Of a stretch of 64,000 nucleotides of DNA, positions 55,950 through 61,837 are shown piece by piece. Numbering within the stretch: the stretch's first letter is position 1; the number at the start of each line of letters is the position of its first letter. The translations under genes and the position numbers were made by a program. The DNA comes from Alphaproteobacteria bacterium (lineage in GTDB: Bacteria > Pseudomonadota > Alphaproteobacteria > UBA828), in assembly GCA_022820945.1 (NCBI GenBank), contig JAJEEP010000140.1, positions 1 to 64,000 of the forward strand, read 5' to 3'. Under the pieces are notes generated by a model. It saw nothing but the letters and a program-made list of their open reading frames with translations. It ran no database searches and had not been told where the DNA came from.

Positions 55950-57998
55950 CTACAAAGTCCGGCACAGGCGGAACGCGTCGAGCACGGCGGCGTAGATGTT
56001 GCGGCTGGAGACCGCGTCGCCGATACGGAAGAGCACGAAGCCGTCGCTCTCGCTTTCCGGTTGCGGTGCGCCCGACAGCAGAGCCTGCTGATCGACCACG
56101 CCCCGGTTTGACGCGCGATCTGCCAGCCCGCGATAGAGGGCGTCTGCGGGGCGCGTCCCGTGCTCGACCACGATGCGGCCGGTCTCGTGCTCCTCCGCCT
56201 CATCGGTCAATTCGTTGCGGAAGGTCACGCGCAGCCGGTTGCCGTCACGTTCGACCCGCTCAAGCCGCCGGTCCAGCCTGGACTCGATGCCGAGCTCGTA
56301 GGTGCGCCGGCGCCAGATGACCTGCTCCGCGTAGGACATCTCCATCGCGAGATGGCCGTCGAGGCCGAAGAACGCGACTTCCCCGCCCGCCTGCCGGATC
56401 GCCTCCGCAGCCGTGAGCGCCGCGTGGCGGCCGGTCCCGTCGTAGACGATGGAGTCTTCGGCAGCTCTGGCAGCGCCAGAGAGGACATCCCAGACGCTGG
56501 TGCAGTGCTCCGCGCCTTCGATCCAGTCAAGATCGGGCGCGCCGCCCGTAGCGACGATGACGACATCAACGCCGTCCAAGGCAATCCTGCCGGGTTCGAT
56601 CGGTGAGTTGAGACGTACGTCGACACCAAGCCGCTCCAACTCGCAGGCTCGCCACTCGACAATCCCCGCTAGTTGGCCGCGCCAGCTTGCCTGCGCCGCC
56701 AGCAGCACCTGTCCGCCGAGCCTCCCCGTCGCCTCGCAAAGCCGCACGTCGTGGCCCCGCTCGGCGCAGACTCGCGCGGCCTCCAACCCGGCCGGCCCGC
56801 CACCCGCAACCAGCACACGCCGCTTCGTCGCCGCCGGCGCGATTGCGTGCGGCAACGCCGCCTCGTGGCCGGTGGAGGGATTGTGAATGCAGGTCGGGCG
56901 CAGCGGACTCATGCAATGGGTCGCGCCCACGCAGGGCCGCACACGCGCCTCCTCGCCGCGCGCGAGCTTCGTCACCAGCTCGGGGTCCGCAATGTGTGCG
57001 CGGGTCATCGACACCATGTCGAGCAGGCCGTCGCGAATCGCGCGCCGCGCCGTCTCCAGCGACGTGATGCGAGTCGCATGGAAGACCGGGAGCCCTACCG
57101 CCTGCTTGAAGGCGCCGGCGCGGGCCAGGAACGGTGCTTCGGGCGAGGCCATGCCCGGCATGCAGTCCGCCGCGAGCTTGTACTCCGTGTCGATGCGGCC
57201 ATAGATCGCATTGAAGAAGTCGATGGTGCCGGACGCCTCGAAGGTAGCGGCGATCTTCAGGCCGTCCTCGAAGGTGAGATGGTGCGGGCCCGCTTCGTCG
57301 ATCACGAAGCGGATGCCGACGATGAAGTCGTCGCCGACGCGCTTGCGGATCGCCTCGTGCACCATCAGCCCGAAGCGGCAGCGGTTCTCGACCGAACCGC
57401 CGAAGCTGTCGCCGCGCCGATTGGTGGCCGGCGAGAGGAACTGGCCGATGAGGTGAGCGCCGGCGAAGGTCTCGATGCCGTCGAGCCCGCCCTCCCTGCA
57501 GCGCGTCGCCGCCTCGCCGAAGTCGTTCGCGACGCGCGCAATGTCGTGCTCGTCCATCTCCTTCGCAAAGGCTCGATGCAGGGTCTCGCGCACGGGCGAC
57601 GGGCCGATGGGCGCAAGCGCCGCCCCGGCGTAAGGCTCGGCCCGCCCGCCGACGTGGCTCACCTGGCACATCAGGGCGGCGCCGTGGGCGTGGATGCGCC
57701 GCGAGAACTGCTGGAGGTGCTCGACCACGCGCTCGTCGTAGAGGTTGATCTGCGGCAGGCTCCACGCGGACTCGGGCGAGACGTTCGATGAGCCGCCGAA
57801 CATGGTGAGCGCCAGCCCGCCCCGCGCCTTGGCCTCGTGGTAGCGCTGGTAGCGCTCACTCGGCATGCCGTCCTCGACCAGTCCGCACGCGTGGCTGGTG
57901 CTCATGATGCGGTTCTTGAGGGTGAGGTGCTTCAGCCTGAAGGGCTGGAGCAGAGGATCGCTCGCGGAGTCATGGGATACCGGCACCGTCTCGGCCAT
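55950..57998 (-). CDS. NADH:flavin oxidoreductase, N-methylproline-demethylase/2,4-dienoyl-CoA reductase-like
   Basis: A 682-residue protein from ATG 57998 (MAETVPVSHD; GGAGAGCAGG upstream). An Old Yellow Enzyme barrel (about 1-340) has AGAHLIGQFLSPATNRRGDSFGG. An iron-sulfur region follows (RPCVGATHCMSPLRPTCIHNP), then an NAD/FAD half with LVAGGGPAGLEAARV. Only three of the four cluster cysteines are present (C356, C362, C370); the second is Ala359. The CVGA variant recalls annotated N-methylproline demethylases. A demethylating or reducing role on a methylated amino acid fits the neighbouring genes but is inferred. Confidence 0.85.
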   Translation of the reverse strand: MAETVPVSHDSASDPLLQPFRLKHLTLKNRIMSTSHACGLVEDGMPSERYQRYHEAKARGGLALTMFGGSSNVSPESAWSLPQINLYDERVVEHLQQFSRRIHAHGAALMCQVSHVGGRAEPYAGAALAPIGPSPVRETLHRAFAKEMDEHDIARVANDFGEAATRCREGGLDGIETFAGAHLIGQFLSPATNRRGDSFGGSVENRCRFGLMVHEAIRKRVGDDFIVGIRFVIDEAGPHHLTFEDGLKIAATFEASGTIDFFNAIYGRIDTEYKLAADCMPGMASPEAPFLARAGAFKQAVGLPVFHATRITSLETARRAIRDGLLDMVSMTRAHIADPELVTKLARGEEARVRPCVGATHCMSPLRPTCIHNPSTGHEAALPHAIAPAATKRRVLVAGGGPAGLEAARVCAERGHDVRLCEATGRLGGQVLLAAQASWRGQLAGIVEWRACELERLGVDVRLNSPIEPGRIALDGVDVVIVATGGAPDLDWIEGAEHCTSVWDVLSGAARAAEDSIVYDGTGRHAALTAAEAIRQAGGEVAFFGLDGHLAMEMSYAEQVIWRRRTYELGIESRLDRRLERVERDGNRLRVTFRNELTDEAEEHETGRIVVEHGTRPADALYRGLADRASNRGVVDQQALLSGAPQPESESDGFVLFRIGDAVSSRNIYAAVLDAFRLCRTL

Positions 57999-58157
57999 GT
58001 TCCTGCTCTCCACTACAAGGCGCGTGCCCGTCGTCTATGGGCGCGTGCAGGATAGCCGCGCCGGGTTCCGGCAGCGACAGTGGAGCCTCAGGAATCCTGT
58101 TGCGCGCGTTCGATAGCCGTGCGCCAAATGCGCCGCCTTCTCTCCGGAGCCTGACGC
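57999..58157. promoter_or_regulatory. Divergent promoter region
   Basis: A 159-bp interval between two divergent flavoenzyme genes. It must contain both promoters. No consensus hexamers or palindromes stand out. Confidence 0.35.
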
Positions 58158-59498
58158 ATGGAACGGTATCTCGGGCGCCTGGGCGCCGCCGCCTTCGAGG
58201 ACGTGCCGCACTTCGGGCACTACGACGTGGCGGTCGTCGGCGGTGGGCCGGCCGGGATCGCCGCGTCTACCACCGTCGCCGAGTTGGGCCACAAGACGCT
58301 CCTGATCGAGCGTCTGGGCTATTGCGGCGGCGCTGCGGTCTCCGGCATGTCGGGCACCGTTTGCGGGCTCTACATGACCGTGGACGAGCCGCGCATGGCG
58401 CAGCCCCAGCAGGTGATCTTCGGCTTTGCCGAACGCTTCCGCGCGGCGCTCGAGGCCGAGGGCGGCGTCACCCGGCCGCAGATCTACGGCAAGACCTGGG
58501 TCGTTACGCACGACTGCGCCACCTACAAGCGCGTCGCCACAGATCTCGTACGCGCCGCCGGCGTGGATGCCCTCTATCACACGCAGATGATCGACGTGAT
58601 CGTCGAGGACGACGCCCTCGCCGGTCTCGTGCTTCACACCAAGTCCGGCTACACCAAGGTAACGGCCGAGCGGTTCGTCGACGCCAGCGGCGATGCCGAT
58701 GCCGTCTACAAGATGGGTCTGCACACGACCAAAGGGAACAACGGCGTCATCCAGAACCCGACGATGATGTTCAAGATCGGCAATGTCGATGTTGAGCGCT
58801 ATCTCGACTACTGGGGCGAGGATACGATCTCGCCGCCCAAGGTCATCTCCATGCTGGAAGCGCGCGACGAGCTGGTGCGCAAGAAAGTTTGGCTGTTCCC
58901 TACCGTCAACCCGCGCGAACTCCTGGTCAATGCGACCAAGATTACCGGCTTCGATGGGCGCGCGCTCGACGTGACCGACCCGGTCGATCATACCGAAGCC
59001 GAGCAGTTCTCGATCTATCAGGCCCGTGCATTCTTCGATTTCCTCAAGGAAAATATTCCCGGTTGCGAAGACGCCTATTTCATCGACTACGGCGCCGAGG
59101 TCGGCGTGCGCCAGACCCGCTCAATCGACGGGATGGCACGCCTCATGAACGCCGATGTCGTGGGCACGAGCAAGCGGGCCGACGCCGTCGCCCGCTCAAG
59201 CTGGCCCATCGAGCTGCACTACGGCGCCAAGCCCAAGACCGAGTGGCTGGTCGACGACTACTACGAGGTGCCGTTCGGCACCCTGGTACCCAGCGAGGGC
59301 CGCAACGTCATCGTCGCCGGCCGGTGCCTCAGCGCGGAACACGAAGCCCTGGCGAGCTGCCGCGTCACCGCACAGTGCTTCGAGTACGGTCGCGCTGCCG
59401 CGATCGCGGCCGACATTTCGATCAGGGACGACCTGACCTTCCAGGAGATCGATGGTGTCGCAGTCGCCGAGCGGATGAAGGCGGGAACGTTCGGGTAG
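58158..59498 (+). CDS. FAD-dependent oxidoreductase (FAD_oxidored family)
   Basis: A 446-residue flavoprotein. The dinucleotide-binding start is DVAVVGGGPAGIAASTTVAELGHKTLLIER, followed by GYCGGAAVSGMSGTV. RFVDASGDADAVYKMGL is the second conserved block and NVIVAGRCLSAEHEALASCR the third. The family contains many uncharacterised oxidases near catabolic genes. It diverges from the demethylase-like gene and is followed by two enolase-superfamily genes on the same strand. Confidence 0.88.
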   Translation: MERYLGRLGAAAFEDVPHFGHYDVAVVGGGPAGIAASTTVAELGHKTLLIERLGYCGGAAVSGMSGTVCGLYMTVDEPRMAQPQQVIFGFAERFRAALEAEGGVTRPQIYGKTWVVTHDCATYKRVATDLVRAAGVDALYHTQMIDVIVEDDALAGLVLHTKSGYTKVTAERFVDASGDADAVYKMGLHTTKGNNGVIQNPTMMFKIGNVDVERYLDYWGEDTISPPKVISMLEARDELVRKKVWLFPTVNPRELLVNATKITGFDGRALDVTDPVDHTEAEQFSIYQARAFFDFLKENIPGCEDAYFIDYGAEVGVRQTRSIDGMARLMNADVVGTSKRADAVARSSWPIELHYGAKPKTEWLVDDYYEVPFGTLVPSEGRNVIVAGRCLSAEHEALASCRVTAQCFEYGRAAAIAADISIRDDLTFQEIDGVAVAERMKAGTFG

Positions 59499-59501
59499 AG
59501 A

Positions 59502-59536
59502 GAAAGTTTTGTATATAAGTTTGTTACATAACTTTC
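59502..59536. promoter_or_regulatory. AT-rich operator-like inverted repeat
   Basis: gaaagttttgta at 59502-59513 is opposed by tacataactttc at 59525-59536, matching at 11 of 12 positions with an 11-bp spacer. It lies in a 60-bp, strikingly AT-rich gap between the FAD oxidoreductase and the first enolase-superfamily gene. Position and symmetry suit a dimeric regulator site. No regulator gene is in the window. Confidence 0.65.
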
Positions 59537-59558
59537 TTCATTCTATGAGATAGCATCA

Positions 59559-60683
59559 ATGCCCTCTGTAATCGTCGAACGAATCGAGTTGCTGGCGATC
59601 GGGCCCGATGGCGAGCGGGTGACGTGGTCGTCGCATCTCGGGCCCGTGTACGAGGCGCTGATCGTCGCGCGGCTTTCCCTCTCCAATGGTGTCGAAGCGA
59701 TTGCCGGGACCACGACCTATACCGAGCACGAGTTCGACCGGACGACATTTCACGCGGCGGCCTTGATGGCGCCGTTTGTGCTGGAGCGCGATGCCTTCGA
59801 CACTCGCGCTGCCTACGCGGACATGCGCAAGCGCTACGTTCCGCTCGGTCATTTGGCGACATCGCTCTTCGACATTGCACTGCATGACGGCAAGGCCAAA
59901 TCGGAAGACCTTCCGCTATACCGAGTGCTCGGTAATGCTCGGCACAACGTCCCCGCCTATGCGTCGAGCCCGTTACTGCCGACGGATCAGGCCTATGTCG
60001 ACTACTGCCACGACATGCTGAAGCTCGGCTATCGAGCGATCAAAATTCATCCCTATTGTGTGTTCGATGACGACGTGCGTTTGGTGAAGCACCTTGTCGA
60101 AGAATTCGCAGAAAAGGAAACTAAATTTAGCCTGGACGTGGACGGCATGTACTCGTTCGATCAGGCGCTCCGTATGGGGAAAACTCTGGACGAAGCAGGT
60201 TGGGAATTCTTCGAGGCGCCGCTCCCCGACACCGATTTATCCGGCTACAAAAGGCTCGCAGATGCACTCGATCTCGACGTGATCTGCGGCGGAAACACCC
60301 TCCCCCACCCACAACTCATTGAGTTCGCGTTGGAGATGGGCGCATGGGACCGCAGCCGCTTCGACGTAACCGGCATCGGCGGCTTCACGGGCGCCGGTGA
60401 AGTGGCAGAGCTCACCAAAGCTCACGGTAAGACCTGCGAAGTGCAAGGCTGGGGCTACACGCTCACGCAGGCGGCGAACCTGCACTTCATGCTCGCCCAT
60501 CTGCACTGCACCAATTTCGAGCAGGCCACGCCGTTCCAAAAATACGAGTTCGGCGCTCGGCAGGTCATCCGCCCGGACGCGAACGGCTTCGTCCGCCCGA
60601 GTGAGTTGCCGGGACTGGGAGTCGAGATGGACTGGGACCGGATCGAGCCCTTCGTCTACGCCCGGCGGGTATTCTCACCATGA
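59559..60683 (+). CDS. Divergent enolase-superfamily (mandelate racemase/MLE-like) protein
   Basis: A 374-residue protein with the enolase capping domain plus barrel layout. The barrel has AIKIHPYC (K162-x-H164 in place of KxK), metal-ligand candidates D193/D195 (LDVDGMYS) and E219 (FFEAPLPD). The third ligand position reads CGGNTLPHP, where an acidic residue is expected, and no catalytic His of the PH-type is found. The active site is therefore non-canonical. Codon use is less GC-rich than its neighbours in the middle. The stop overlaps the next gene (ATGA). Confidence 0.8.
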   Translation: MPSVIVERIELLAIGPDGERVTWSSHLGPVYEALIVARLSLSNGVEAIAGTTTYTEHEFDRTTFHAAALMAPFVLERDAFDTRAAYADMRKRYVPLGHLATSLFDIALHDGKAKSEDLPLYRVLGNARHNVPAYASSPLLPTDQAYVDYCHDMLKLGYRAIKIHPYCVFDDDVRLVKHLVEEFAEKETKFSLDVDGMYSFDQALRMGKTLDEAGWEFFEAPLPDTDLSGYKRLADALDLDVICGGNTLPHPQLIEFALEMGAWDRSRFDVTGIGGFTGAGEVAELTKAHGKTCEVQGWGYTLTQAANLHFMLAHLHCTNFEQATPFQKYEFGARQVIRPDANGFVRPSELPGLGVEMDWDRIEPFVYARRVFSP

Positions 60684-61837
60684 CCGTGACCGTCGAGCGG
60701 GTGGAGGTCCTCTGTCTGCAGGACCCGCAAGCCGCCTACTACCGCTTCGAGGGCAGCTATCGGAACGTTGTCGTCCTCGTGCATGGCGACAATGGGCTCA
60801 CGGGCATCAGCGAGAGCGACGCGCCGCCCGAGATCGTGAAGGCCCTGATCGAGATGCCGCCTTACAACCAGCGCTCCGAGGGGCTGGCCGACATCGTCGC
60901 CGGGCAGGCGGTGGACGACCCGCGCCGCCTCTGGGACGAAATGTACGCGCGCACGCAGTGGCACGGCCGGCGTGGTGCCGCGATGCACGCAATCAGCGCG
61001 CTAGATATCGCCATCTGGGACCTCTTCGCCCAATCGCAGGGCATCCCGGTCTCCGAGGCTCTGGGCGGCTCTCGTCACGCCCGCCTCCCCGCCTACGCGA
61101 CCATCTATCCCCTCGAGGACACGCCCGCGCGTATCGAGGCACAAGTCGTGCCGCTGCTGGAGCGGGGCTTCCGCCACTTCAAGGTCTGTGTCGAGCCGTG
61201 GTGGAGCGAGCCGAACCGGGTGCGGCGAAACCTGACACACCTGCGCGATCTGGCGGGGCCGGCGCGCACTCTGATGCTCGATGTCGCGCAGGAGTACACC
61301 CGCTTCGAGCAGCTCGAACCCTTTCTCGACCTGCTGGCCGCGCTGGACTTCGCCTGGATCGAGGCCCCCTTCCCCCTCGACAATGTGGAGGACCACGCGC
61401 GCCTCCGCGCCGCCACGCGCATCCCCATCGGTGTCGGCGATCTGGGCCTTACCACCTGCAAGGAGTTCGAGTCCTTCCTTGCGGCCGACGCGTTCGATAT
61501 TGCGCAGCCGGATCTCACCAATTTCGGCGGCTTCACCGAGGCGCTTCGGCTCGCGCAGATGCTGGACGGCACCGATCGGCGCATCGTGCCCCACGCCTAC
61601 AACACGGACATCACCATCGCGGCTAACCTTCACTTCCTGGCCGCGCAGCCGGATCCTGAACTCGTCGAGTATTCGACGAGCCCATCGCACTTGCGCCAGA
61701 GCCTGGCGCGAGGACTCGCGCCGATCGACGCCGACGGGATGATCCCGGTCCCTACCGCTCCCGGCCTCGGCGTGACGCTGAACGCCGATGCGGTCGCAGA
61801 ATTTGCGCTCAGTCGCGCCGCTGAAGCATCCCGTTGA
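60680..61837 (+). CDS. Mandelate racemase/muconate-lactonizing enzyme family protein
   Basis: A 385-residue enolase-superfamily enzyme. The acid metal triad is complete: D201 (LDVAQEYT), E228 (WIEAPFP) and D254 (GVGDLG). H305 in VPHAYNTD is the likely general base, and K168 lies in HFKVC at the barrel strand-2 position. It should abstract an alpha-proton from a carboxylate (racemase, epimerase or dehydratase). It is coupled to the non-canonical paralogue upstream. Its 3' end overlaps the convergent permease gene by 29 bp. Confidence 0.9.
   Translation: MTVTVERVEVLCLQDPQAAYYRFEGSYRNVVVLVHGDNGLTGISESDAPPEIVKALIEMPPYNQRSEGLADIVAGQAVDDPRRLWDEMYARTQWHGRRGAAMHAISALDIAIWDLFAQSQGIPVSEALGGSRHARLPAYATIYPLEDTPARIEAQVVPLLERGFRHFKVCVEPWWSEPNRVRRNLTHLRDLAGPARTLMLDVAQEYTRFEQLEPFLDLLAALDFAWIEAPFPLDNVEDHARLRAATRIPIGVGDLGLTTCKEFESFLAADAFDIAQPDLTNFGGFTEALRLAQMLDGTDRRIVPHAYNTDITIAANLHFLAAQPDPELVEYSTSPSHLRQSLARGLAPIDADGMIPVPTAPGLGVTLNADAVAEFALSRAAEASR

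What the first reader, a model, noticed from the sequence alone, without database searches (positions are those of the whole stretch)
59559..60683. Enolase-superfamily member lacking its third acidic metal ligand
The usual D-E-D/E triad reads D-E-then CGGN, and KxK reads KIH. Its coupled neighbour keeps the full triad. This one may use different metal chemistry, be a non-catalytic partner, or have a new activity. AT-richer sequence and an AT-rich upstream gap point to separate acquisition.
Basis: partly seen in the sequence, partly recalled or inferred. Interest (0 to 1): 0.5.

Follow-up and report, generated by a model that had tools for sequence, protein, structure and literature searches.

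The report
Betaine-linked enolase relative missing metal ligand
This gene belongs to a widespread, uncharacterised enzyme family related to mandelate racemase in which one of the three metal-gripping acids has been replaced by glycine in every member checked, and which often sits beside a betaine importer, suggesting an unexplored way for bacteria to break down betaines.

Summary
The protein (59559-60683) has the mandelate-racemase/enolase-superfamily fold (AlphaFold pLDDT 96; TM 0.97 to PDB 4JHM). It keeps ligands D193 and E219, lacks the third acid, and has K-x-H for K-x-K. Structure-guided alignment puts glycine 245, not asparagine 246, at the third-ligand position. This is a family trait: in 89 members from several phyla G245, K162, H164, D193 and E219 are invariant. 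The beta-7 histidine is glutamine in 88 of 89. An acid two residues after ligand 1 (D/E195) is present in 87 of 89; the two exceptions have His244. The family is one tree clade, separate from K-x-H relatives that keep the third acid. A BCCT betaine transporter lies beside the gene in 25 of 80 loci and in all 3 annotated plasmid copies, but beside none of 6 annotated relatives that keep the acid. Best explanation: a catalytic, single-face K/H-base enzyme, probably a betaine eliminase, with a rearranged metal site. A non-catalytic partner is unlikely (31 loci lack the second enolase nearby). Separate acquisition is not supported. No function for this family was found in the held papers. Metal content and substrate remain untested.

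The parts
59559..60683 (+). MR1 (P0001): enolase-superfamily protein with D-E-G in place of D-E-D/E
60042..60050 (+). K162-I163-H164, the K-x-H general-base motif (invariant 89/89)
60135..60137 (+). D193, metal ligand 1 (end of beta 3)
60141..60143 (+). D195, acid two residues after ligand 1 (D/E in 87/89; T/V in outer group); candidate replacement ligand or cation contact
   Evidence: role is inference
60213..60215 (+). E219, metal ligand 2 (end of beta 4)
60291..60293 (+). G245, position of the lost third ligand (Gly 89/89; E 8/8 in outer group; D254 in P0002)
60294..60296 (+). N246, next to the lost ligand; N in 75/89, Y/F in a marine subclade
60444..60446 (+). Q296, in place of the beta-7 catalytic His (Q 88/89; H 8/8 in outer group)
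60680..61837 (+). MR2 (P0002): second enolase-superfamily protein, D201-E228-D254 intact, His305 present, K168-x-C
58158..59498 (+). FAD_oxidored (PF12831) gene, conserved partner of MR1 (25 of 80 loci)
59499..59558 (+). AT-rich leader between FAD oxidoreductase and MR1 (GC 0.27); in many other lineages a BCCT transporter gene lies between these two genes

Best explanation
MR1 is a catalytic member of a distinct enolase-superfamily family that acts on a carboxylate-bearing betaine (a zwitterion with a quaternary ammonium, or a sulfonium such as DMSP) brought in by BCCT or betaine ABC transporters. Shown: the predicted fold, invariant K-x-H, D193 and E219, invariant Gly at the third-ligand position, Gln replacing the beta-7 His, acid at 195, one clade, and a recurrent BCCT neighbour. 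Inferred: the substrate carboxylate is bound to a divalent metal held by D193, E219 and D/E195 (or His244 in the 4JHM branch); K162/H164 on one face removes the alpha proton; with no opposite-face base the enzyme is a one-base eliminase (loss of hydroxide, amine or sulfide from the beta carbon) rather than a racemase; the aromatic residues 298/300 that accompany the His loss may help hold the onium group. MR2 and the FAD oxidoreductase would handle related isomers or the product, since both are optional.
For: 89 members with K162, H164, D193, E219, G245, E321 invariant. G245 rows form one side of a single branch, support 100/98, in 100% of bootstrap trees. BCCT (PF02028, E 2e-139) next to MR1 in 25 of 80 loci, in four separated tree clades and three phyla, and in 3 of 3 annotated plasmid copies, against 0 of 6 annotated relatives that keep the acid. 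Other subclades have OpuAC betaine-binding proteins, a gamma-butyrobetaine/TmpA-like dioxygenase and a crotonobetainyl-CoA-hydratase-like protein nearby. High-confidence model and fold match to 4JHM.
Against: No coordinates were available, so metal geometry was not measured; 4JHM's title mentions no metal. 4JHM and its Vibrio relative lack the acid at 195, so the replacement-ligand idea needs His244 there. The window's own genus has no BCCT beside MR1, and the only BCCT found in its genome lies on another contig. In many subclades the neighbours are not betaine genes (for example amino-acid-type ABC genes plus an SDR). The substrate has not been tested.
Confidence: 0.5

Rival explanations
1. 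MR1 is an ordinary acid-sugar dehydratase in which N246 takes over the third-ligand role, as Asn does in glucarate dehydratase; the transporter neighbours are incidental.
For: Asn stands at this general place in the glucarate dehydratase subgroup (ATN motif in L124; ligand role from memory). Many relatives are sugar-acid enzymes. One gapless profile alignment (3OZM) puts N246 on the ligand Glu.
Against: Spacing and predicted secondary structure put G245, not N246, at the ligand position. N246 becomes Y/F in a subclade while G245 never changes. Glucarate dehydratase model TIGR03247 is not among the hits. BCCT transporters carry betaines, not sugar acids (established knowledge of the family).
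Confidence: 0.2
2. MR1 is a non-catalytic or regulatory partner of MR2 (pseudoenzyme subunit).
For: 4-nt gene overlap with MR2; metal-site loss; MR2-like genes within 5 kb in 31 of 80 loci; complementary halves (MR1 keeps K-x-H, MR2 keeps His305).
Against: 31 loci with full flanks lack MR2; the Vibrio cassette has FAD oxidoreductase-MR1-BCCT without MR2; base and metal residues are invariant across phyla.
Confidence: 0.1
3. MR1 uses the enolase scaffold without a divalent metal, with the substrate's own cationic group or H164/R267 stabilising the enolate.
For: Third ligand is Gly; 4JHM is described without a metal and lacks the acid at 195; a cationic substrate could supply charge.
Against: D193 and E219 stay invariant in 89/89, as expected if a metal still binds.
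Confidence: 0.12

Closest known systems
PDB 4JHM, putative MR/MLE enzyme, Pseudovibrio sp. (released 2013; no functional paper found here)
   Same: Same fold (TM 0.97, 36% identity), K-x-H, D, E, Gly at the third position, Gln at beta 7; its Vibrio relative also sits with FAD oxidoreductase, GntR and BCCT
   Different: Ala at 195 and His at 244 instead of D/E195 and Gly/Ala244
K-x-H relatives with intact triad (outer group L019-L028; A. tumefaciens 1RVK/4HCH, the latter titled D-glucarate dehydratase)
   Same: K-x-H, D, E, beta-6 Asp in the outer group, same spacing
   Different: Keep Glu as third ligand and the beta-7 His; the 6 annotated acid-keeping relatives checked have no BCCT within 5 kb
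Mandelate racemase / acid-sugar dehydratase (MR) subgroup
   Same: Fold, Pfam domains, D-E ligands
   Different: No third acid, K-x-H not K-x-K, no beta-7 His
Glucarate dehydratase subgroup
   Same: A non-acidic residue (Asn) near the third-ligand place (ATN motif; ligand role from memory)
   Different: No family hit; different spacing (29 residues from the Glu, read from L124); GlucD keeps a His in the beta-7 region
4-hydroxyproline betaine 2-epimerase (HpbD; from memory)
   Same: An enolase-superfamily enzyme acting on an imported betaine
   Different: Not compared here; from memory it has K-x-K and a full triad and is an epimerase, for which MR1 lacks the second base

Membership tests
Enolase superfamily (homology) | MR_MLE N- and C-terminal domains / capping domain plus barrel fold | tested here: met
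Enolase superfamily (chemistry) | Three carboxylate metal ligands at the ends of beta 3, 4 and 5 | tested here: not met
   D193, E219 present; Gly245 at the third position, 89/89
Enolase superfamily (chemistry) | Binds Mg2+ and forms a metal-stabilised enolate | not testable with these tools
   no coordinates or assay
Mandelate racemase subgroup | K-x-K base motif on beta 2 | tested here: not met
   K-x-H 89/89
Mandelate racemase subgroup | His on beta 7 paired with Asp on beta 6 | tested here: not met
   Q296 88/89; D269 81/89
Glucarate dehydratase | TIGR03247 score above cut-off | tested here: not met
   absent from the P0001 hits at E<=0.001; no match in this genome at E<=1e-150
4JHM-like D-E-G family | K-x-H, D, E, Gly at third ligand, Gln at beta 7 | tested here: met
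4JHM-like D-E-G family | BCCT/betaine transporter beside the gene | tested here: inconclusive
   true for 25/80 loci and 3/3 plasmid copies, but not in the window's own genus

The most novel reading that the evidence does not exclude
MR1 is a CoA-independent betaine lyase built on the enolase scaffold, for example a carnitine dehydratase (giving crotonobetaine) or a DMSP/betaine beta-eliminase, using a rearranged metal site in which D/E195 (or His244) replaces the lost third ligand.
Probability: 0.2. Interest if true: 0.75.

Novelty: new variant of a known kind. Interest (0 to 1): 0.5.

Why it matters
The three acidic metal ligands are a defining part of enolase-superfamily catalysis. A large clade that has fixed glycine at one of them, lost the beta-7 acid/base and gained a nearby acid gives a natural experiment on how that metal site can be rebuilt. 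If the betaine link is right, it also points to an unassigned route for degrading abundant marine osmolytes, found in roseobacters, marine gammaproteobacteria, relatives of SAR11 and several Firmicutes.

Tried and rejected
N246 as the third ligand (glucarate-dehydratase type): rejected as less likely on spacing and helix register. Obligate partner of MR2: rejected because many loci lack MR2. Separate acquisition: rejected because of operon conservation. A universal replacement ligand at 195: weakened by 4JHM and its Vibrio relative. Literature on this family (4JHM, K-x-H, mandelate racemase with BCCT, carnitine or betaine): nothing found in ten searches of the held library. The genome's only BCCT match scores best against glycine-betaine/choline transporter models and is not beside MR1.

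Full report
What is there. ORF 59559-60683 encodes a 374-residue protein with both MR_MLE domains. It overlaps the next enolase-superfamily ORF (60680-61837) by 4 nt and follows an FAD_oxidored (PF12831) gene at 58158-59498. The AlphaFold model is confident (pLDDT 96.2, pTM 0.94) and its best PDB match is 4JHM, a Pseudovibrio protein described only as a putative MR/MLE enzyme (TM 0.97, 36% identity).

The motif. D193 ends beta 3 and E219 ends beta 4. The third acid is absent. I tested whether the third-ligand position is G245 or N246. In all 89 family members, in the outer-group proteins checked and in P0002 the spacing E219->245->269 is 26 and 24 residues, and the column holds Glu in the outer group (8/8) and Asp in P0002. 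Predicted helices 4 and 5 of P0001 (227-236, 251-259) and P0002 (236-245, 260-268) are offset by exactly 9 residues, which again pairs G245 with D254. One profile alignment (3OZM) would instead pair N246 with Glu, so I hold this at about 85%.

It is a family trait. A scan of GTDB genomes returned 162 relatives, of which the best 80 were kept. With the window protein, 4JHM, three plasmid copies and further genomes, 89 members share K162, H164, D193, E219, G245 and E321 without exception; Q296 replaces the beta-7 His in 88. Residue 195 is D or E in 87; the two exceptions (4JHM and a Vibrio plasmid protein) have Ala195 and His244. In a maximum-likelihood tree the 80 G245 rows are one side of a single branch (support 100/98, 100% of bootstrap trees). 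The root was placed only for drawing.

Context. Clustering the genes around the 80 loci shows a recurrent set: FAD oxidoreductase (25 loci), BCCT transporter (25), MR1, MR2 (within 5 kb in 31) and a GntR/FCD regulator. The BCCT identity is secure (PF02028, E 2e-139; nearest solved relative DddT, a DMSP importer, and PMC13270143). BCCT neighbours occur in four separated tree clades, including Bacillota and Fusobacteriota. In an independent collection, all three annotated plasmid copies have BCCT within two genes, while six annotated relatives that keep the acidic ligand have none within 5 kb. Other subclades have OpuAC betaine-binding proteins, a dioxygenase nearest TmpA/gamma-butyrobetaine dioxygenase, and a protein nearest crotonobetainyl-CoA hydratase, the last two below their curated cut-offs. 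The window's own genus keeps FAD oxidoreductase-MR1-MR2 but no adjacent BCCT.

Reading. Invariance of the base and of two ligands across phyla argues for catalysis. Loss of the opposite-face His leaves a single-face K/H base, which fits an eliminase better than a racemase (inference). The conserved acid at 195 may replace the lost ligand or contact an onium group; the aromatic residues at 298 (W/Y/F in 87 of 89) and 300, which come with the His loss, could help form a cage (inference). MR2 and the FAD oxidoreductase are optional, so MR1 with a transporter looks like the core.

Low GC is mild and not shared by all relatives; the AT-rich leader is shared by five of six related loci. These do not indicate separate acquisition.

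Limits. No coordinates could be inspected, no assay run, and the papers library holds only open-licence work; the ligand details for glucarate dehydratase and the description of HpbD are from memory. Counts of loci with BCCT are not independent events, since related genomes share ancestry; the four separated clades and the plasmid copies are the better measure.

Noticed in passing
L039 (WNWL01000006.1): A contig labelled Oceanobacillus (Bacillota) carries an MR1 operon nested inside Roseobacteraceae with a short branch; the assembly is probably mis-named or contaminated.
   Followed up: no
L079 (JAURFX010000046.1): A MAG contig labelled Gammaproteobacteria is nearly identical to Pelagibacteraceae copies; likely misbinning.
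   Followed up: no
L112:7289-8494, minus strand (same contig as the window, about 7 kb past its end): A protein resembling DMSP lyase DddP (M24 family; 330 bits, curated cut-off 600); M24 peptidase-family genes recur downstream in related loci.
   Followed up: partly
60680-61837 (P0002): The second enolase keeps the full metal triad and beta-7 His but its K-x-K motif is K-x-C, the mirror image of MR1's losses.
   Followed up: partly
55950-58013, minus strand: An OYE/FadH-type flavoenzyme beside the operon, found at this place in related loci; resembles mycofactocin-system OYE 2 and BaiCD below cut-off.
   Followed up: no
L089-L109 subset (for example L090, L109): A marine subclade of the family has Tyr or Phe instead of Asn246 and different neighbours; it may have another function.
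   Followed up: no
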